This document shows positions 2-6,080 of a stretch of 10,000 bases of DNA, piece after piece. The first letter of the stretch is position 1; each line of letters begins with the position of its first letter. This DNA comes from Anaerolinea sp. (GTDB taxonomy: Bacteria > Chloroflexota > Anaerolineae > Anaerolineales > Anaerolineaceae), in assembly GCA_020216845.1 (NCBI GenBank), contig JAIWNK010000039.1, forward strand, positions 1 to 10,000, written 5' to 3'. Made by a program: the position numbers and the translations under genes. The notes under the pieces are model-generated. The model saw nothing but the letters and a program-made list of their open reading frames with translations, did not search any database and was not told where the DNA came from.

Positions 2-118
2 AACCTGTTTGGTACCAATGCCCCCGATTATCGCATTCTGCGCGCCAAGTCGTTGGAAGGGGCGGTGATGCCGGATGGCTCGAAGAACTGGCGACAAGAA
101 GGCCATCAGGAAAGCTGA
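2..118 (+). CDS. C-terminal end of an unrecognised protein (partial)
   Basis: An open frame enters from the left edge and stops with TGA at 116-118, giving 38 visible residues. They are polar and include ILRAKSLEG, VMPDGSKNW and the terminal HQES. I do not recognise the family from this tail. It overlaps the next gene by about 44 bases if that gene starts at the ATG at 75, which would suggest translational coupling and a shared operon. Sulfur-carrier genes often sit beside the enzyme they serve (a TtuA-type thiolase, a MoeB-like activator, a tungsten or molybdenum oxidoreductase). The tail lacks the Cys-rich end expected of TtuA, so no assignment is made. The frame could also be a chance one. 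Confidence 0.5.
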   Translation, partial: NLFGTNAPDYRILRAKSLEGAVMPDGSKNWRQEGHQES

Positions 119-320
119 ACAGGCGCAGATTCGGCTGCGGCAGCAAGTGTTCTTTGTTTGCTCCGGTCAGCCGCTCAGCCAGGCTTTGCTGACTTTGGGC
201 CTGGAGCCGGAGCGTTTTTTGGCTGTGCGTAATGGGCAGATGCTGCCAATGGATGGGGTATTGGCCGCCGGCGACGAGGTGCAATTGGTTGCAATCGTCG
301 CCGGCGGCTGCTTGCGCTAG
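75..320 (+). CDS. ThiS/MoaD-family ubiquitin-like sulfur carrier, TtuB-like
   Basis: Small 81-residue beta-grasp protein. Residues 31-78 follow the pattern of TtuB and related small sulfur carriers: a helix PLSQALLTLGLEPE, then LAVRNGQ, then GDEVQLVAIVAGG ending in the diagnostic Gly-Gly (77-78). Family members carry a C-terminal thiocarboxylate that donates sulfur to tRNA 2-thiouridine, thiamine, molybdopterin or other products; TtuB in Thermus thiolates tRNA U54. The chain does not end at Gly-Gly: Cys-Leu-Arg follows (79-81), which would have to be removed before activation. The ATG at 75 has GGAAGGGG at 55-62, a rather long 12-base spacing. It gives about 18 extra basic residues before the fold, so the true start may be further in (ATT 129 or GTG 147 are the only others nearby). 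The TAG stop overlaps the glnA stop on the other strand. The family is sure; the exact pathway is not. Confidence 0.82.
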   Translation: MARRTGDKKAIRKAEQAQIRLRQQVFFVCSGQPLSQALLTLGLEPERFLAVRNGQMLPMDGVLAAGDEVQLVAIVAGGCLR

Positions 321-1654
321 ACGGTTTCGAGGTAGCGCTTCAGTTCCCAATCGCTGACGTGCAGGCGATATTCTTCCCATTCGGCCATGGCCGCGGTGCG
401 GAATTGGGCATAGGTCGTTGGCCCCAGCGCGTCTTTGATAACCGGGTCGCGGTCGAGTTCACCGAGCGCTTCAATCAACGAGCCGGGCAATTCGCTGACC
501 CCCAGCTGAGCGCGCTCTTCGGCGTTGAGGTGATAGACGTTGATGTTGTTGAGCGGCTCGGGGCAGGGCAATTGGCGATCAATGCCATCCAATGCGGCGC
601 CCAACATGGCGGCAAATGCCAGGTAGGGGTTGCAAGAGGGGTCGGGGCAGCGTAATTCGGCGCGCACGGCCTTGTATTGACCCTCGGTGTAGCGCGGAAT
701 GCGAATCAGCGCGGAGCGGTTGGTCTGTGCCCAGCCAACGTAGACAGGCGCCTCATAGCCGGGCACAAGGCGTTTGTAGGAGTTGACCGAGGGGGCGACA
801 ACCGCAGAAAGCGCGCGTGCATGGGCGAGTTGCCCGGCAATTAACCCATAGGCCAGGCGGGAAAGGTGGAAGGGGTCGTCTCGGTCATAGAAGACGTTGT
901 TGCCTTCCAGGTCGGAGAAGGATTGGTGACAATGCATTCCCGAGCCATTGATGCCAAAGATGGGCTTGGGCATGAACGAGGCGATCAGACCGTGCTGAGC
1001 AGCAATGGCTTTGACGGTGTATTTGAGCGTGAGCACGTTATCGGCAGTGCGGAGGGCATCGGCAAAGCGGAAGTCAATCTCATGTTGGCCGAGGGCAACT
1101 TCGTGATGGCCAACCTCGACTTCCAGCCCCATGCTGTTGAGGGCGGCCATCAGCTCAGAGCGCACCCGCACCGCCTCGTCATTGGGGGAGAAGTCAAAAT
1201 AGCTGCCCACGTCATGGGGGACGGGATGAATGCTATCCCCGCCATTGCGCCGGAAGAGGAAGAATTCTGGCTCGGGGCCAACCTGGAAGGTTAAGCCACG
1301 CTGACGTAGTTTTTCGAGGGTGCGCTTGAGCACGCCGCGCGGGTCACCATCAAAGGGGCGTCCATCGGGTTGATAGATGTCGCACAAGAAGCGTGCCCGG
1401 CGCATATCCGCCGGGGTCCATGGCAGCACAGCATAGGTGTCGACATCCACGCGCAGGTGCATGTCGCTTTCCTGAATGCGGGCAAAGCCTTCGACGGAGG
1501 AGCCATCGAACCACAGGCCGTCATCCAAGGCCTGCGAAAGGCGCTCAACCGGTGCATCCAGGCTTTTGACTGCGCCGGTTACATCGGTAAATTGGAAGGA
1601 CACAAAGCGAATGCCATCTTCCCGAACACGAGCAAGGACTTGTTGTTTATTCAT
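317..1654 (-). CDS. glnA: Glutamine synthetase type I (GSI-alpha-like)
   Basis: Cytoplasmic dodecameric enzyme that makes glutamine from glutamate, ammonia and ATP. The 445-residue length and the lack of a GSI-beta insertion fit the alpha subtype (Bacillus type), which is not adenylylated. Visible landmarks are DGSSVEGF (50-57) and ESDMHL (62-67); the metal and substrate site GPEPEFFLF (126-134); HHEVALGQHEIDF (183-195, with Leu where Pro is usual); NGSGMHCHQS (236-245); the ATP/glutamate region NSYKRLVPGYEAP (291-303); NRSALIRIP (312-320); and RCPDPSCNPYL (335-345). The start is the ATG at 1654-1652 because GGAGGT (1664-1659) lies 4 bases upstream and the family's N-terminus begins there. 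The frame stays open upstream to an ATG at 1750, but that extension runs through leader hairpins and is not family-like. The gene has its own promoter and a leader of about 390 bases containing a glmS-type ribozyme, so glucosamine-6-phosphate control is proposed. It converges with the sulfur-carrier gene, and the stop codons overlap. Confidence 0.97.
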   Translation of the reverse strand: MNKQQVLARVREDGIRFVSFQFTDVTGAVKSLDAPVERLSQALDDGLWFDGSSVEGFARIQESDMHLRVDVDTYAVLPWTPADMRRARFLCDIYQPDGRPFDGDPRGVLKRTLEKLRQRGLTFQVGPEPEFFLFRRNGGDSIHPVPHDVGSYFDFSPNDEAVRVRSELMAALNSMGLEVEVGHHEVALGQHEIDFRFADALRTADNVLTLKYTVKAIAAQHGLIASFMPKPIFGINGSGMHCHQSFSDLEGNNVFYDRDDPFHLSRLAYGLIAGQLAHARALSAVVAPSVNSYKRLVPGYEAPVYVGWAQTNRSALIRIPRYTEGQYKAVRAELRCPDPSCNPYLAFAAMLGAALDGIDRQLPCPEPLNNINVYHLNAEERAQLGVSELPGSLIEALGELDRDPVIKDALGPTTYAQFRTAAMAEWEEYRLHVSDWELKRYLETV

Positions 1655-1675: not shown

Positions 1676-1710
1676 AAAAATTGAACGGGACATGCAAAGG
1701 CATGGCCCGT
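1676..1710 (-). terminator. Terminator-like hairpin ahead of the glnA ribosome-binding site
   Basis: ACGGG-C-CAUGC (1710-1700) pairs with GCAUG-U-CCCGU (1695-1685). That is two 5-bp blocks around a single C/U mismatch, with a CUUU loop. UCAA and a run of five U (1680-1676) follow. It lies about 12 bases before the GGAGG of glnA and could attenuate transcription. The upstream stretch GCAUGG (1748-1743) is a perfect complement of CCAUGC (1705-1700) in the hairpin's 5' arm, so an anti-terminator pairing exists. The U-run is offset by four bases from the stem, so efficiency is uncertain. Confidence 0.45.
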
Positions 1711-1755
1711 TGTAAACCAAACAAACAGATAGGCTGGCCTTCCCATGCAAACAAA

Positions 1756-1772
1756 CCGGTGTGATGCACCGG
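1756..1772 (-). other. Hairpin directly after the ribozyme
   Basis: CCGGUG (1772-1767) pairs with CACCGG (1761-1756) around CAUCA. UUUGUUUG follows, giving a weak terminator-like look. It abuts the 3' strand of the P3.1 pseudoknot and could stack on it. It may be part of an expression platform or simply a spacer between the ribozyme and the gene. Confidence 0.45.
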
Positions 1773-1990
1773 GTCGCGTTTGCACATTGTCACAGCCGTC
1801 ACCGGCTGCTTTTGAGTGCAGACTTGAATTCTGGAAGGGGAGAAAGGAGCCTGCGACTGGCTCCGGAGGCATCCGCTGATCTACTCGATTTTTCCCTGTT
1901 TTCCTGACCCCGACAGGGGTAGCACACGTTTCGCAACGTGGAACCTCCACCTCGTCATCTCATCCTGATTGGGTGAGACTCAGCCGCTAT
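1773..1990 (-). ncRNA. glmS-type self-cleaving ribozyme/riboswitch in the glnA leader
   Basis: Read on the minus strand. The strings GACGAGG (1956-1950), GGAGGUU (1948-1942), AUCGA (1889-1885) and UCAGCGGAUGCCUCC (1879-1865) match the conserved core of glmS ribozymes, recalled from the Bacillus subtilis and Thermoanaerobacter sequences. The pairings fit too. P1 is 1979-1971/1965-1957. P2 is GGAGG 1948-1944/CCUCC 1869-1865. P2.1 is CGA 1954-1952/UCG 1888-1886. P2.2 is 1986-1980/1879-1874, with one bulged G at 1984. P3 is GGAGCC 1864-1859/GGCUCC 1851-1846. P3.1 pairs the P3 loop GUCGC (1857-1853) with GCGAC (1777-1773). P4 is UGCAC 1820-1816/GUGCA 1785-1781. P4.1 is CAGCCG 1808-1803/CGGCUG 1798-1793, closed by a GUGA tetraloop. 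The G at 1956 aligns with the catalytic guanine (G33 in B. anthracis, G40 in Thermoanaerobacter). Predicted cleavage is between A1988 and G1987, in AUA|GCG. Differences from the standard are an insert of about 52 bases at 1941-1890, a P3-P4 linker of about 25 bases, and the glnA context. Catalysis and ligand response are inferred. Confidence 0.85.
1890..1941 (-). other. Two-hairpin insertion inside the ribozyme core
   Basis: In the reference glmS ribozymes I know, GGAGGUU runs almost directly into AUCGA. Here about 52 bases separate them. They contain a perfect 6-bp stem CACGUU/AACGUG (1940-1935/1930-1925) closed by a GCGA (GNRA) tetraloop, then a 5-bp stem ACCCC/GGGGU (1920-1916/1911-1907) with a UGUC loop, then a purine-rich tail. 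A competing pairing, CCCUGU with ACAGGG across 1918-1893, is also possible. The insert enters between the P2 strand and the P2.1 strand. It could be a peripheral stabilising domain. Confidence 0.65.
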
Positions 1991-2018
1991 TTCTCCAACG
2001 CTATTCTTTTGTTGTCGG

Positions 2019-2051: not shown

Positions 2052-2081
2052 ATATTAACATGGGTTTGTGACATTTGTCAA
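2052..2081 (-). promoter_or_regulatory. Sigma-70-type promoter of glnA
   Basis: Minus strand: -35 TTGACA (2081-2076), 18-base spacer, -10 TAATAT (2057-2052); TTAATA gives a 17-base spacer. Transcription should start near 2045, so the mRNA has a leader of about 390 bases that begins with a stable hairpin and then enters the ribozyme. This is the strongest promoter match in the gap, and it is divergent from the recA promoter. Confidence 0.8.
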
Positions 2082-4719: not shown

Positions 4720-6080
4720 GCACCGGGCAGAGGCGGAACGCCATTGTGACGGACAATTTCGGCAAACCAGCGTCCGCTATCTTTGAGGATGCGCTGCTGC
4801 GTCTCAAAATCTACGTAGCACAGGCCAAAGCGCATTCGGTAGCCGTAAGCCCATTCGAAGTTATCCAACAAACTCCACACCAGGTAGCCAATGACCGGCA
4901 CGCCTTGTTGGATGGCGCGCTGGAGTTGCACAAGGTGTTGGTGCAGGTAGCGAATGCGGCGTTCGTCGCGCACACGTCCATCGGCATCTACACCGTCAGG
5001 CACGGGCACGCCGTTCTCGGTGATGAAGAGCGGCAGCGGCGGATAGTCGCGTTGCAGGCGCAGCAGCAGTTCAAATAACCCGGCGGGGTAGATTTCCCAC
5101 ATTTGTGAATATTCGTTGCCGATTGGTTGCACCTGACTGGCCTGGATGAGGGGAGTTTGTGGGTCATGATGGATGACGGCACGGGTGTAGTAGTTGACGC
5201 CCAAAAAGTCCAACGGGGCAGAAATAAGCCGCAAATCATCCGGTTCAATGGGCGGGAAGAACGACCCAAGTGCCTCGAGCAGCTCTTGCGGATAGCAACC
5301 GTATAGCAAGGGGTCGAGGAAGGAGCGGTTCAACACGGCATCAAACAGGTGTGCGGCGGCCTGGTCTTCGGGGGTGTTGGAGGCCGGGTGCACGGGGCTG
5401 AGGTTGAGGGTGATGCCAATCGGTTTTCCGGCAGGCAGTTCGCTGCGCAGGGCTTGCAGGGCTTTGCCATGCGAGAGCAGCAGGTGATGCACACTTTGCA
5501 GGGCAGCAAAGGGGTCTTGAATGCCAGGGGCATGTTCACCGGTGAAGTGACCGGCCATGGCAGCTACCCAGGGTTCGTTGTGTGTAATCCAATAAGCAAC
5601 CCGGTCGCCCAGGCGACGGGCAATCACCGCGGCATAGTCTGCAAAGGCATCGGTTGTTTGGCGGTTGGGCCAGCCGCCCTGATCTTGCAGGGCTTGCGGT
5701 AAATCCCAGTGGAAGAGGGTTAGAACCGGGGCCAGGCCGTTGGCAAGTAATTCATCAATCAGCCGGTCGTAAAAGTCTAACCCGGCCGGGTTGAGGCTGC
5801 CATTGCCTTGTGGAAAGATGCGGCTCCAGGCGATGGAGAAGCGGTAGGCATTCAGGCCCATCTCCTTCATCAGGCGGATGTCATCTTGATAGCGCAGGTA
5901 GTGCTCTGCCGCTCGGTCGCCGGTTTCCTGGCGTTCAATTTTGCCAGGTGTGTGGCTAAATGTATCCCAAATGGAAGGGCCTTTGCCGTCAGCTGTCGGG
6001 CTGCCTTCGATTTGGTAAGCGGATGAAGCTGTCCCCCACAAGAAGTTGGATGGGAAGGGAAGCAAGGGTGTGTCGGTCAT
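4707..6080 (-). CDS. GH1 family beta-glucosidase
   Basis: Hydrolyses terminal beta-linked glucose (or galactose/fucose) from oligosaccharides. 457 residues, usual for GH1, with no signal peptide, so cytoplasmic. Visible: N-terminal FLWGTASSAYQIEG (Gln23 sugar site), FHWDLPQ (123-129), acid/base Glu169 in THNEP, NYYTR (297-300 region), nucleophile Glu355 in ITENG, and the aglycone/glycone residues around WSLLDNFEWAYGY (402-414). The start is the ATG at 6080-6078 with GGAGGG 5 bases upstream; a longer in-frame reading to 6134 would pass through the promoter. It has its own promoter at 6114-6141. The exact sugar specificity cannot be read from the sequence. The gene symbol bglA/bglB is not assigned. 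Confidence 0.96.
   Translation of the reverse strand: MTDTPLLPFPSNFLWGTASSAYQIEGSPTADGKGPSIWDTFSHTPGKIERQETGDRAAEHYLRYQDDIRLMKEMGLNAYRFSIAWSRIFPQGNGSLNPAGLDFYDRLIDELLANGLAPVLTLFHWDLPQALQDQGGWPNRQTTDAFADYAAVIARRLGDRVAYWITHNEPWVAAMAGHFTGEHAPGIQDPFAALQSVHHLLLSHGKALQALRSELPAGKPIGITLNLSPVHPASNTPEDQAAAHLFDAVLNRSFLDPLLYGCYPQELLEALGSFFPPIEPDDLRLISAPLDFLGVNYYTRAVIHHDPQTPLIQASQVQPIGNEYSQMWEIYPAGLFELLLRLQRDYPPLPLFITENGVPVPDGVDADGRVRDERRIRYLHQHLVQLQRAIQQGVPVIGYLVWSLLDNFEWAYGYRMRFGLCYVDFETQQRILKDSGRWFAEIVRHNGVPPLPGAQGT

What the first reader, a model, noticed from the sequence alone, without database searches (positions are those of the whole stretch)
1773..1990. A glmS-type ribozyme sits in front of glutamine synthetase
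Seen: the conserved core strings in correct order and every helix of the glmS ribozyme, including two features that are hard to get by chance. These are the P3-loop pseudoknot (GUCGC 1857-1853 with GCGAC 1777-1773, exactly after P4) and P4.1 with a GUGA loop. P2.2 shows a compensatory change, CU/AG where B. subtilis has CC/GG. Known: the glmS ribozyme cleaves its own mRNA when bound to glucosamine-6-phosphate and is described, as far as I know, ahead of glmS, which consumes glutamine. Glucosamine-6-phosphate is also a classical cumulative feedback inhibitor of E. coli glutamine synthetase. Inference: the same metabolite acts on glnA mRNA here, a re-targeting of the ribozyme to the enzyme that supplies glutamine. 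I cannot exclude that similar cases are already catalogued.
Basis: partly seen in the sequence, partly recalled or inferred. Interest (0 to 1): 0.95.

Follow-up and report, generated by a model that had tools for sequence, protein, structure and literature searches.

The report
glmS-type ribozyme controlling ammonia assimilation
A self-cutting RNA known for sitting in front of the amino-sugar gene glmS also sits, in an altered form found across many Anaerolineales bacteria, in front of the genes for glutamine synthetase and glutamate synthase, where it would likely cut the message when glucosamine-6-phosphate builds up and so probably tie nitrogen assimilation to cell-wall sugar supply.

Summary
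Confirmed, and larger than reported. Window 1999-1768 (-) scores 41.8 bits against the Rfam glmS ribozyme (cut-off 37) and leads into glnA (1654-317, -). The same genome has a second, weaker copy before glmS. In 61 genomes (window's and relatives) 68 matches precede glmS (42), glnA (25) or neither (1); 18 genomes have both. A capped GTDB scan for the variant core gave 112 ribozymes: glnA first in 71, an ada/eamA operon in 20 (glnA seen behind it in 15), glutamate synthase-family genes in 11. In the phylum sample outside the order, 52 of 53 precede glmS and none glnA. The variant keeps the cleavage site and P2.1 pocket letters but moves the P2.2 bulge from position 6 to 4; 51 of 66 pairs covary. 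Not in RF00234: a helix (P0) pairing the leader upstream of the cleavage site with J3/4, and, in many glnA-type but few glmS leaders, a terminator-like hairpin with an upstream element that can pair with it or with the ribozyme. Likely mechanism: GlcN6P-dependent self-cleavage lowers GS/GOGAT expression, possibly by attenuation. Cleavage, ligand and attenuation are untested. Ten literature searches showed no earlier description; the 2011 glmS survey was not readable here.

The parts
2052..2081 (-). sigma-70-like promoter, TTGACA 2081-2076, 18 nt spacer, TAATAT 2057-2052, TG before the second hexamer
   Evidence: consensus scan only, 10 of 12 matches; 2 promoter-like sites in the region, 0.8 expected from shuffles
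1768..1999 (-). glmS-type ribozyme (RF00234)
   Evidence: cmscan 41.8 bits, gathering score 37, E 3.3e-7
1990..1996 (-). 5' strand of extra helix P0 (GGAGAAA), upstream of the cleavage site
   Evidence: pairs with 1845-1839; in A1 7 of 7 pairs have double changes, 81.1% of cells paired; swap test
1987..1988 (-). predicted cleavage site A1988|G1987
   Evidence: aligned to AGCG of RF00234. A and G in the parsed glnA-type rows, but the parser favoured A at this place; L047 reads G|G by eye
1981..1986 (-). P2.2 5' strand C2 G3 (G4 bulge) C5 U6 G7
1957..1979 (-). P1 hairpin (GUCUCA 1979-1974 with UGAGAU 1962-1957)
   Evidence: 8 of 9 P1 pairs of A1 have double changes
1944..1955 (-). ACGAGG core with P2.1 5' strand (1954-1952) and P2 5' strand GGAGG (1948-1944)
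1886..1888 (-). P2.1 3' strand UCG, part of the cofactor pocket
   Evidence: pocket role of residues 43-45 from PMC7125110 passages, numbering mapped by me
1874..1878 (-). P2.2 3' strand C52 A53 G54 C55 G56
1865..1869 (-). P2 3' strand CCUCC
   Evidence: 100% of cells paired, almost invariant
1846..1864 (-). P3 hairpin, loop strand GUCGC 1857-1853
   Evidence: 6 of 6 P3 pairs with double changes
1839..1845 (-). 3' strand of P0 (UUUCUCC)
1833..1838 (-). element E1 CCUUCC in J3/4
   Evidence: complementary to E2 (by eye)
1778..1823 (-). P4 (1823-1816 with 1785-1778) and P4.1 (1809-1803, GUGA loop, 1798-1792)
   Evidence: 6 of 6 P4 pairs (75% of cells paired) and 7 of 7 P4.1 pairs with double changes
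1773..1777 (-). P3.1 3' strand GCGAC
   Evidence: 5 of 6 P3.1 pairs with double changes, 82.6% of cells paired
1732..1744 (-). element E2 GGGAAGGCCAGCC; GGAAGG 1743-1738 pairs with E1
1684..1711 (-). element E3, terminator-like hairpin, U-run 1680-1676 behind it
   Evidence: window 1716-1672 folds at -15.6 kcal/mol, z -4.08; such a hairpin in 50 of 79 leaders, 2.4 expected. The stock terminator scan did not list it
317..1654 (-). glnA, type I glutamine synthetase, 445 aa, GGAGG 5 nt ahead of the ATG
   Evidence: TIGR00653 521.9 bits; PF00120 and PF03951

Best explanation
The glnA leader carries a glmS-class ribozyme of a distinct conserved subtype that is predicted to cut its own RNA when glucosamine-6-phosphate binds, and so would likely lower glutamine synthetase and, in relatives, glutamate synthase expression. 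Shown here: the ribozyme sequence, its covarying helices, its recurrence before glnA, ada-eamA-glnA operons and glutamate synthase-family genes in Anaerolineales, the unchanged P2.1 pocket letters, the shifted P2.2 bulge, the extra helix P0, and a terminator-like hairpin (E3) with the complementary elements E1 and E2 in 78 of 109 glnA-type leaders examined. Inferred: GlcN6P is the cofactor, cleavage occurs at A1988|G1987, and the result is repression, so that GlcN6P, made from glutamine by GlmS, reports that glutamine is plentiful and turns down the GS/GOGAT pathway together with glmS. Also inferred, and less sure (about 0.4): the output is transcription attenuation. E2 would pair either with the 5' arm of E3 (antiterminator, read-through) or with E1 in the ribozyme (which frees E3 to terminate), and ribozyme folding or cleavage would tip the choice.
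For: RF00234 hit above cut-off. Second ribozyme (35.6 bits, below cut-off) directly before a GlmS (TIGR01135, 780.8 bits) in the same genome. Of 68 matches in 61 genomes 42 precede glmS, 25 glnA, 1 neither; 18 of 49 positive genomes have both. Variant-core scan, capped: of 119 stretches 7 are chance matches and 112 ribozymes (4 of them cut off or masked before the middle); glnA first in 71, ada/eamA first in 20 (glnA seen behind in 15), glutamate synthase-family genes first in 11, 8 at a contig end, 2 other, 0 glmS, the last partly by choice of pattern. PF01645 Glu_synthase for both proteins of one such pair, 24.0 and 290.2 bits against 20.4. Covariation in 51 of 66 pairs, 0 of 500 shuffles as high. 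P2.1 letters C44 and G45 the same in all 115 glnA-type and 42 glmS-linked rows, U43 in 112 and 39. E3 in 50 of 79 leaders against 2.4 expected, in 4 of 41 glmS leaders. E1, E2 and E3 together in 78 of 109 leaders, none in 11. E2 tail fits its own E3 5' arm better than others' (-12.12 against -10.84, sd 0.16) and the 3' arm no better (77 leaders). A 2007 survey thought attenuation may be over-represented in Chloroflexi riboswitches in general (PMC2258182, passages).
Against: No cleavage, ligand or expression data. Position 4 is C in 42 of 42 glmS-linked rows but G or A in the bulk of glnA-type rows; published changes in P2.2 are strongly harmful and only partly rescued by bulge shifts (PMC7125110, passages), so cleavage may be slow. 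8 of 42 glmS-linked rows fit no bulge-shift scheme (A or C at 6 opposite A53). 31 of 109 leaders lack at least one of E1, E2, E3. In the window E1:E2 is only 6 bp and E2:E3 about 4 bp (by eye). E3 alone (mean -16.18) is more stable than E2:E3 (-12.12), so read-through would depend on timing. In the E1:E2 swap test the longest stem lies in E1 in only 17 of the 35 variant leaders (my count by eye). 11 of the 50 E3 hairpins end 40-93 nt from the start codon and some are other hairpins. Swap and shuffle tests do not remove shared ancestry. Why ada- and eamA-like genes share the operon is unexplained.
Confidence: 0.75

Rival explanations
1. The variant core has changed cofactor, for example to another amine made from glutamine or to glutamine itself, as happens in rare variant riboswitch classes that change gene partners (recalled).
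For: A consistent core difference goes with a different gene set: AGCGRCUG in 22 of 25 glnA-linked copies found without the pattern, C at position 4 in 42 of 42 glmS-linked ones. The position before ACGAGG is G in 42 of 42 glmS-linked rows but in 52 of 115 glnA-type rows.
Against: G1, C2 and the P2.1 letters, which the paper places at the cleavage site or cofactor pocket, match between the two sets, and the changed positions 4-6 go with a P2.2 that still pairs (99.4% of cells).
Confidence: 0.1
2. GlcN6P-dependent self-cleavage acts only by mRNA decay, as described for the glmS mRNA; E1:E2 is a structural closing helix and E3 a constitutive partial terminator or stability hairpin.
For: Decay after cleavage is the mechanism stated for this class (PMC9971707, passages), and PMC2258182 sets it apart from classes with expression platforms (passages). 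10 of 72 leaders with glnA directly behind have none of the three elements yet keep the ribozyme.
Against: E3 lies 21-35 nt before the start codon in 39 of the 50 leaders that have such a hairpin, is rare before glmS (4 of 41), and E2 tracks the 5' arm of E3 and not the 3' arm.
Confidence: 0.4
3. The element is a decayed copy of the glmS ribozyme without activity.
For: Moderate score (41.8 bits), and position 4 departs from the glmS-linked copies.
Against: Core letters are nearly invariant in 115 parsed copies, helices covary, glnA-linked copies occur in 24 genus codes, and 50 glnA-type rows form one side of a branch, SH-aLRT 86.
Confidence: 0.05
4. The ribozyme serves a neighbouring transcript and not glnA.
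For: recA is divergent next to it; a hairpin stands between ribozyme and glnA.
Against: On the same strand, glnA, an ada/eamA(-glnA) operon or glutamate synthase-family genes come first among the recognised genes in 102 of the 104 scanned loci with room to see.
Confidence: 0.03

Closest known systems
glmS ribozyme (RF00234)
   Same: covariance-model match above cut-off, P1, P2, P2.1, P2.2, P3, P3.1, P4, P4.1 and P2.1 pocket letters
   Different: precedes glnA, ada/eamA(-glnA) or glutamate synthase-family genes; P2.2 bulge at position 4; extra helix P0 (also in glmS-linked copies of the clade); terminator-like hairpin downstream
glutamine riboswitch (glnA RNA, RF01739)
   Same: listed as a glutamine-sensing motif named after glnA (PMC3766115, passages)
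   Different: no match above its cut-off in the window; a small aptamer and not a ribozyme (recalled)
Deinococcus-Thermus glmS ribozyme variants with additional stems in the core (McCown 2011)
   Same: the window also carries extra hairpins between P2 and P2.1 (63 nt where the model has 10)
   Different: described for other phyla; recalled from the abstract, the paper was not held

Membership tests
glmS ribozyme | score above the RF00234 gathering cut-off | tested here: met
   41.8 against 37 bits
glmS ribozyme | A|G cleavage site in AGCG | tested here: met
   present in the window and the parsed rows (the parser favoured A); L047 has G|G by eye
glmS ribozyme | core double pseudoknot P2.1/P2.2 | tested here: met
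   97.9 and 99.4% of cells paired in A1; almost invariant, so no covariation
glmS ribozyme | bulge at position 6 of P2.2 (as in the studied T. tengcongensis core) | tested here: not met
   bulge at position 4 in the window and in 22 of 25 glnA-linked copies found by RF00234; a feature of the known sequences rather than a stated condition of membership
glmS ribozyme | P3/P3.1 pseudoknot and P4.1 tetraloop hairpin | tested here: met
   P3.1 5 of 6 and P4.1 7 of 7 pairs with double changes
glmS ribozyme | GlcN6P-dependent self-cleavage | not testable with these tools
   needs bench work
glmS ribozyme | located before glmS (usual, not structural) | tested here: not met
   glnA follows
glutamine riboswitch RF01739 | score above its cut-off | tested here: not met
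   RF00234 is the only family reported

The most novel reading that the evidence does not exclude
A ribozyme that works a transcription attenuator: in Anaerolineales the glmS ribozyme was duplicated, re-cored and joined to an antiterminator/terminator pair, turning GlcN6P into a general nitrogen-sufficiency signal that shuts the whole GS/GOGAT pathway by RNA self-cleavage.
Probability: 0.35. Interest if true: 0.95.

Novelty: new variant of a known kind. Interest (0 to 1): 0.86.

Why it matters
In the review passages seen here the glmS ribozyme is a device that regulates production of its own cofactor (PMC10043782, PMC9971707, PMC2258182). A conserved, structurally distinct subtype before glutamine synthetase and glutamate synthase genes would make it a pathway-level regulator of nitrogen assimilation and give a natural test of the bulge-shift predictions made from mutant libraries. 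If the hairpin is a regulated terminator, it would be a self-cleaving ribozyme coupled to transcription attenuation. It also offers an RNA counterpart to the old observation (recalled, from E. coli work) that GlcN6P inhibits glutamine synthetase.

Tried and rejected
Ligand switch: compared core letters of glnA- and glmS-linked rows and found no change at G1, C2 or P2.1; kept as a minor rival. P0 as part of the switch: in 38 of 39 rows where both strings could be placed, P0 and E1 overlap by 1-2 letters, which suggested that loss of P0 on cleavage frees E1; in the window they abut without overlap, so this link is not claimed. E2 with the 3' arm of E3: no signal. P0 beyond the clade: only 17 of 58 phylum rows could be parsed; -7.01 against -4.82, sd 0.54, carried by eye mainly by same-order and same-class rows. 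Chance matches: 7 of 119 pattern stretches lack the ribozyme middle; the 5 with titles are not Chloroflexota.

Literature, all in an open-licence library: ten searches, listings only, one with no result. Passages were then seen of PMC3766115, PMC4448311, PMC11602151, PMC9481103, PMC10043782, PMC7125110, PMC2258182 and PMC9971707. None of these shows a glmS ribozyme before glnA or glutamate synthase. McCown 2011 was not held; from recall its abstract says all but two glmS ribozymes lie in glmS mRNAs, and I do not know what the two are.

Rows dropped: 34 of 99 nonredundant glnA-type ribozymes (the longer ones and a misparsed one) were not given to alignment A1; two rows have a misread 5' core (L047 and L161); 3 of 82 glnA leaders (too short); 1 of 42 glmS leaders (L024); of 115 glnA-type rows 50 went into the tree with 42 glmS-linked and 58 phylum rows (quick search).

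Full report
What is there. The only Rfam match above cut-off in the window is the glmS ribozyme RF00234 on the minus strand, 1999-1768, 41.8 bits against a cut-off of 37, over the whole model. The next gene on that strand is a type I glutamine synthetase, 1654-317 (TIGR00653, 521.9 bits). A promoter-like site lies just upstream of the ribozyme. recA is divergent on the other side.

The genome has two. A search of the window's own genome (75.73% complete) finds a second ribozyme, 35.6 bits and so under the cut-off, on another contig. The gene right behind it is a 613-aa GlmS. So one genome carries a copy before the gene that makes GlcN6P from glutamine and a copy before a gene that makes glutamine.

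Conservation. Among 61 genomes (the window's and 60 relatives) 49 have a match at E 0.001 or better, 68 matches in all, and 17 genomes have one over the cut-off. By tblastn against the window genome's own GlnA and GlmS, 42 are followed by glmS, 25 by glnA and 1 by neither; 17 genomes have one of each and an eighteenth has both plus the third copy. In 41 of these genomes 22 GlnA orthologues of at least 65% identity with the N-terminus in view were checked by motif: 17 have the ribozyme within 1.5 kb upstream (one of them known), including two, G003 and G013, whose glnA copy RF00234 did not report; five do not, among them G047 where an EamA-like gene fills the view. Four more distant GlnA (52-56%) have none. 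In 201 genomes across the phylum there are 65 matches in 62 genomes. The 59 not yet classified are followed by a GlmS-like gene in 57 (34-74% identity), glnA in 1 (a genome of the window's family that also has a glmS copy) and neither in 1; the other 6 were classified. Outside the order this makes 52 of 53 glmS, 1 neither, 0 glnA. A GlmS-like protein of the lowest identity tested is still a glmS by NF001484, 413 bits against 381, though its cut-short translation misses TIGR01135 (402.5 against 418).

Wider scan with names. Seven lack the ribozyme middle and are chance matches; the five of them with titles are not Chloroflexota. The other 75 of the 80 titled stretches carry Chloroflexota, Anaerolineae or Anaerolineales names, among them Longilinea arvoryzae, Levilinea saccharolytica, Pelolinea submarina and Bellilinea caldifistulae. 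Of the 112 ribozymes, 4 (L078, L082, L088, L140) are cut off or masked before the middle. glnA is the first recognised gene in 71; an Ada-like AraC/methyltransferase gene (in L076 and L092 only an EamA gene) leads in 20, with glnA seen behind in 15; glutamate synthase-family genes lead in 11, a pair in 8 of these; 8 stop at the contig end; 2 have none of these. None precedes glmS, which the choice of pattern favours. Pfam for one representative each: PF01035 with HTH_18; PF00892; PF01645 for both proteins of the pair, 24.0 and 290.2 bits, cut-off 20.4. Behind the pair in L120 lies a protein with GATase_6 at 26.9 bits, just under its cut-off of 27.

A distinct subtype. In the studied core P2.2 is C2-G56, G3-C55, C4-G54, C5-G53, a bulged position 6 and G7-C52 (PMC7125110, passages). 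Of the 25 glnA-linked copies found by RF00234, that is independently of the pattern, 20 read AGCGGCUG with CAGCGG, 2 AGCGACUG, 2 AGCGUAUG; one (L047) was misparsed and reads GGCGGCUG by eye. The 42 glmS-linked ones have CAUG with CAGCGG (27), CAAG with CAGCGG (7), CCUG or CCAG with CGGCGG (6), CCUG or CACG with CAGCGG (1 each). So the bulge can sit at 4, 5 or 6: with A53, U6 stands opposite in 28 of 36 glmS-linked rows; the other 8 do not pair there. The paper infers from mutant libraries that such bulge shifts restore activity in part. The P2.1 letters that it places in the cofactor pocket are unchanged. A quick tree puts the 50 glnA-type rows used on one side of a branch, SH-aLRT 86, compatible with one origin.

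Covariation. On 65 glnA-type ribozymes my structure of 66 pairs has 90.5% of cells paired (40.5-46.1% when slid), 51 pairs with double changes and a covariation score of 0.472 against 0.199 in shuffles, 0 of 500 as high. P2.1, P2.2 and P2 are almost invariant and give no covariation; P0, P1, the two hairpins between P2 and P2.1, P3, P3.1, P4 and P4.1 do.

Extra helix P0. The leader just 5' of the cleavage site pairs with J3/4 (GGAGAAA with UUUCUCC in the window). All 7 pairs have double changes, 81.1% of cells paired. For 42 glmS-linked ribozymes of the clade the duplex energy is -10.79 against -7.32 (sd 0.40) when partners are swapped, and for 115 glnA-type ones -8.20 against -7.46 (sd 0.09). 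The RF00234 structure line has no such pair. P0 would keep the two cleavage products together; its function is not known, and I cannot say whether it has been described.

Downstream elements. Between ribozyme and glnA many leaders carry E2 (GGAAGGGC...) and E3, a hairpin with a U-rich tail; 69 of 77 E3 hairpins have a GCAUGCC-like 5' arm. A hairpin of -10 kcal/mol or better with such a tail is present in 50 of 79 leaders against 2.4 in block shuffles, 39 of the 50 ending 21-35 nt before the start codon. In the window it folds at -15.6, z -4.08. In 41 glmS leaders, under a slightly looser tail rule, 4 have such a hairpin and 1 has both E1- and E2-like strings. E1 (CCCUUCC, in J3/4), E2 and E3 occur together in 78 of 109 leaders, none in 11, a mixed set in 20; much of this follows ancestry. 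In 35 leaders with a variant E1 the longest exact stem with the downstream leader is 6.49 against 5.50 swapped (sd 0.13), though it lies in E1 in only 17 of them; clear compensated cases are L012, L015 and L150. E2 fits its own E3 5' arm better than others' and the 3' arm no better. This is the layout of an antiterminator. Which ribozyme state favours which pairing is not settled, and the window's own pairings are short.

Reading. The simplest account is that GlcN6P cleaves the glnA and glutamate synthase messages as it does the glmS message, so that the product of glutamine-dependent amino-sugar synthesis reports nitrogen sufficiency. The attenuator is my inference from sequence; the published picture, that this class stands apart from those with expression platforms (PMC2258182, passages), would need amending if it holds.

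Limits. 

Noticed in passing
L066 2289-2511 (+), also L101 797 (+), Longilinea arvoryzae: A further glnA-type ribozyme with no recognised target gene on its strand; a clear ORF downstream is an ABC-transporter ATPase (PF00005) on the opposite strand.
   Followed up: partly
L159, ribozyme at 5365-5580 (-): The other scanned glnA-type ribozyme with none of the recognised genes behind it.
   Followed up: no
L232 (genome G070, match at C334:30271-30512, -): The one match in the phylum sample not followed by glmS or glnA; ORFs behind it look by eye like a sugar aminotransferase, a Gfo/Idh oxidoreductase and a Mur-type ligase (no family search).
   Followed up: partly
L077, L090, L127, L136, L139 and others: An Ada-like O6-methylguanine methyltransferase gene and an EamA transporter gene share the ribozyme-led gene row with glnA; no reason for this is known to me.
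   Followed up: no
window 1772-1756 (-): A further short hairpin with a U-rich tail directly after P3.1; several relatives have a hairpin at this place by eye.
   Followed up: no
window 75-320 (+): Small ORF, by eye a ThiS/MoaD-like sulfur carrier; similar small ORFs and an ATPase of TtcA/TtuA look lie convergent behind glnA in several relatives (clusters c10 and c1).
   Followed up: no
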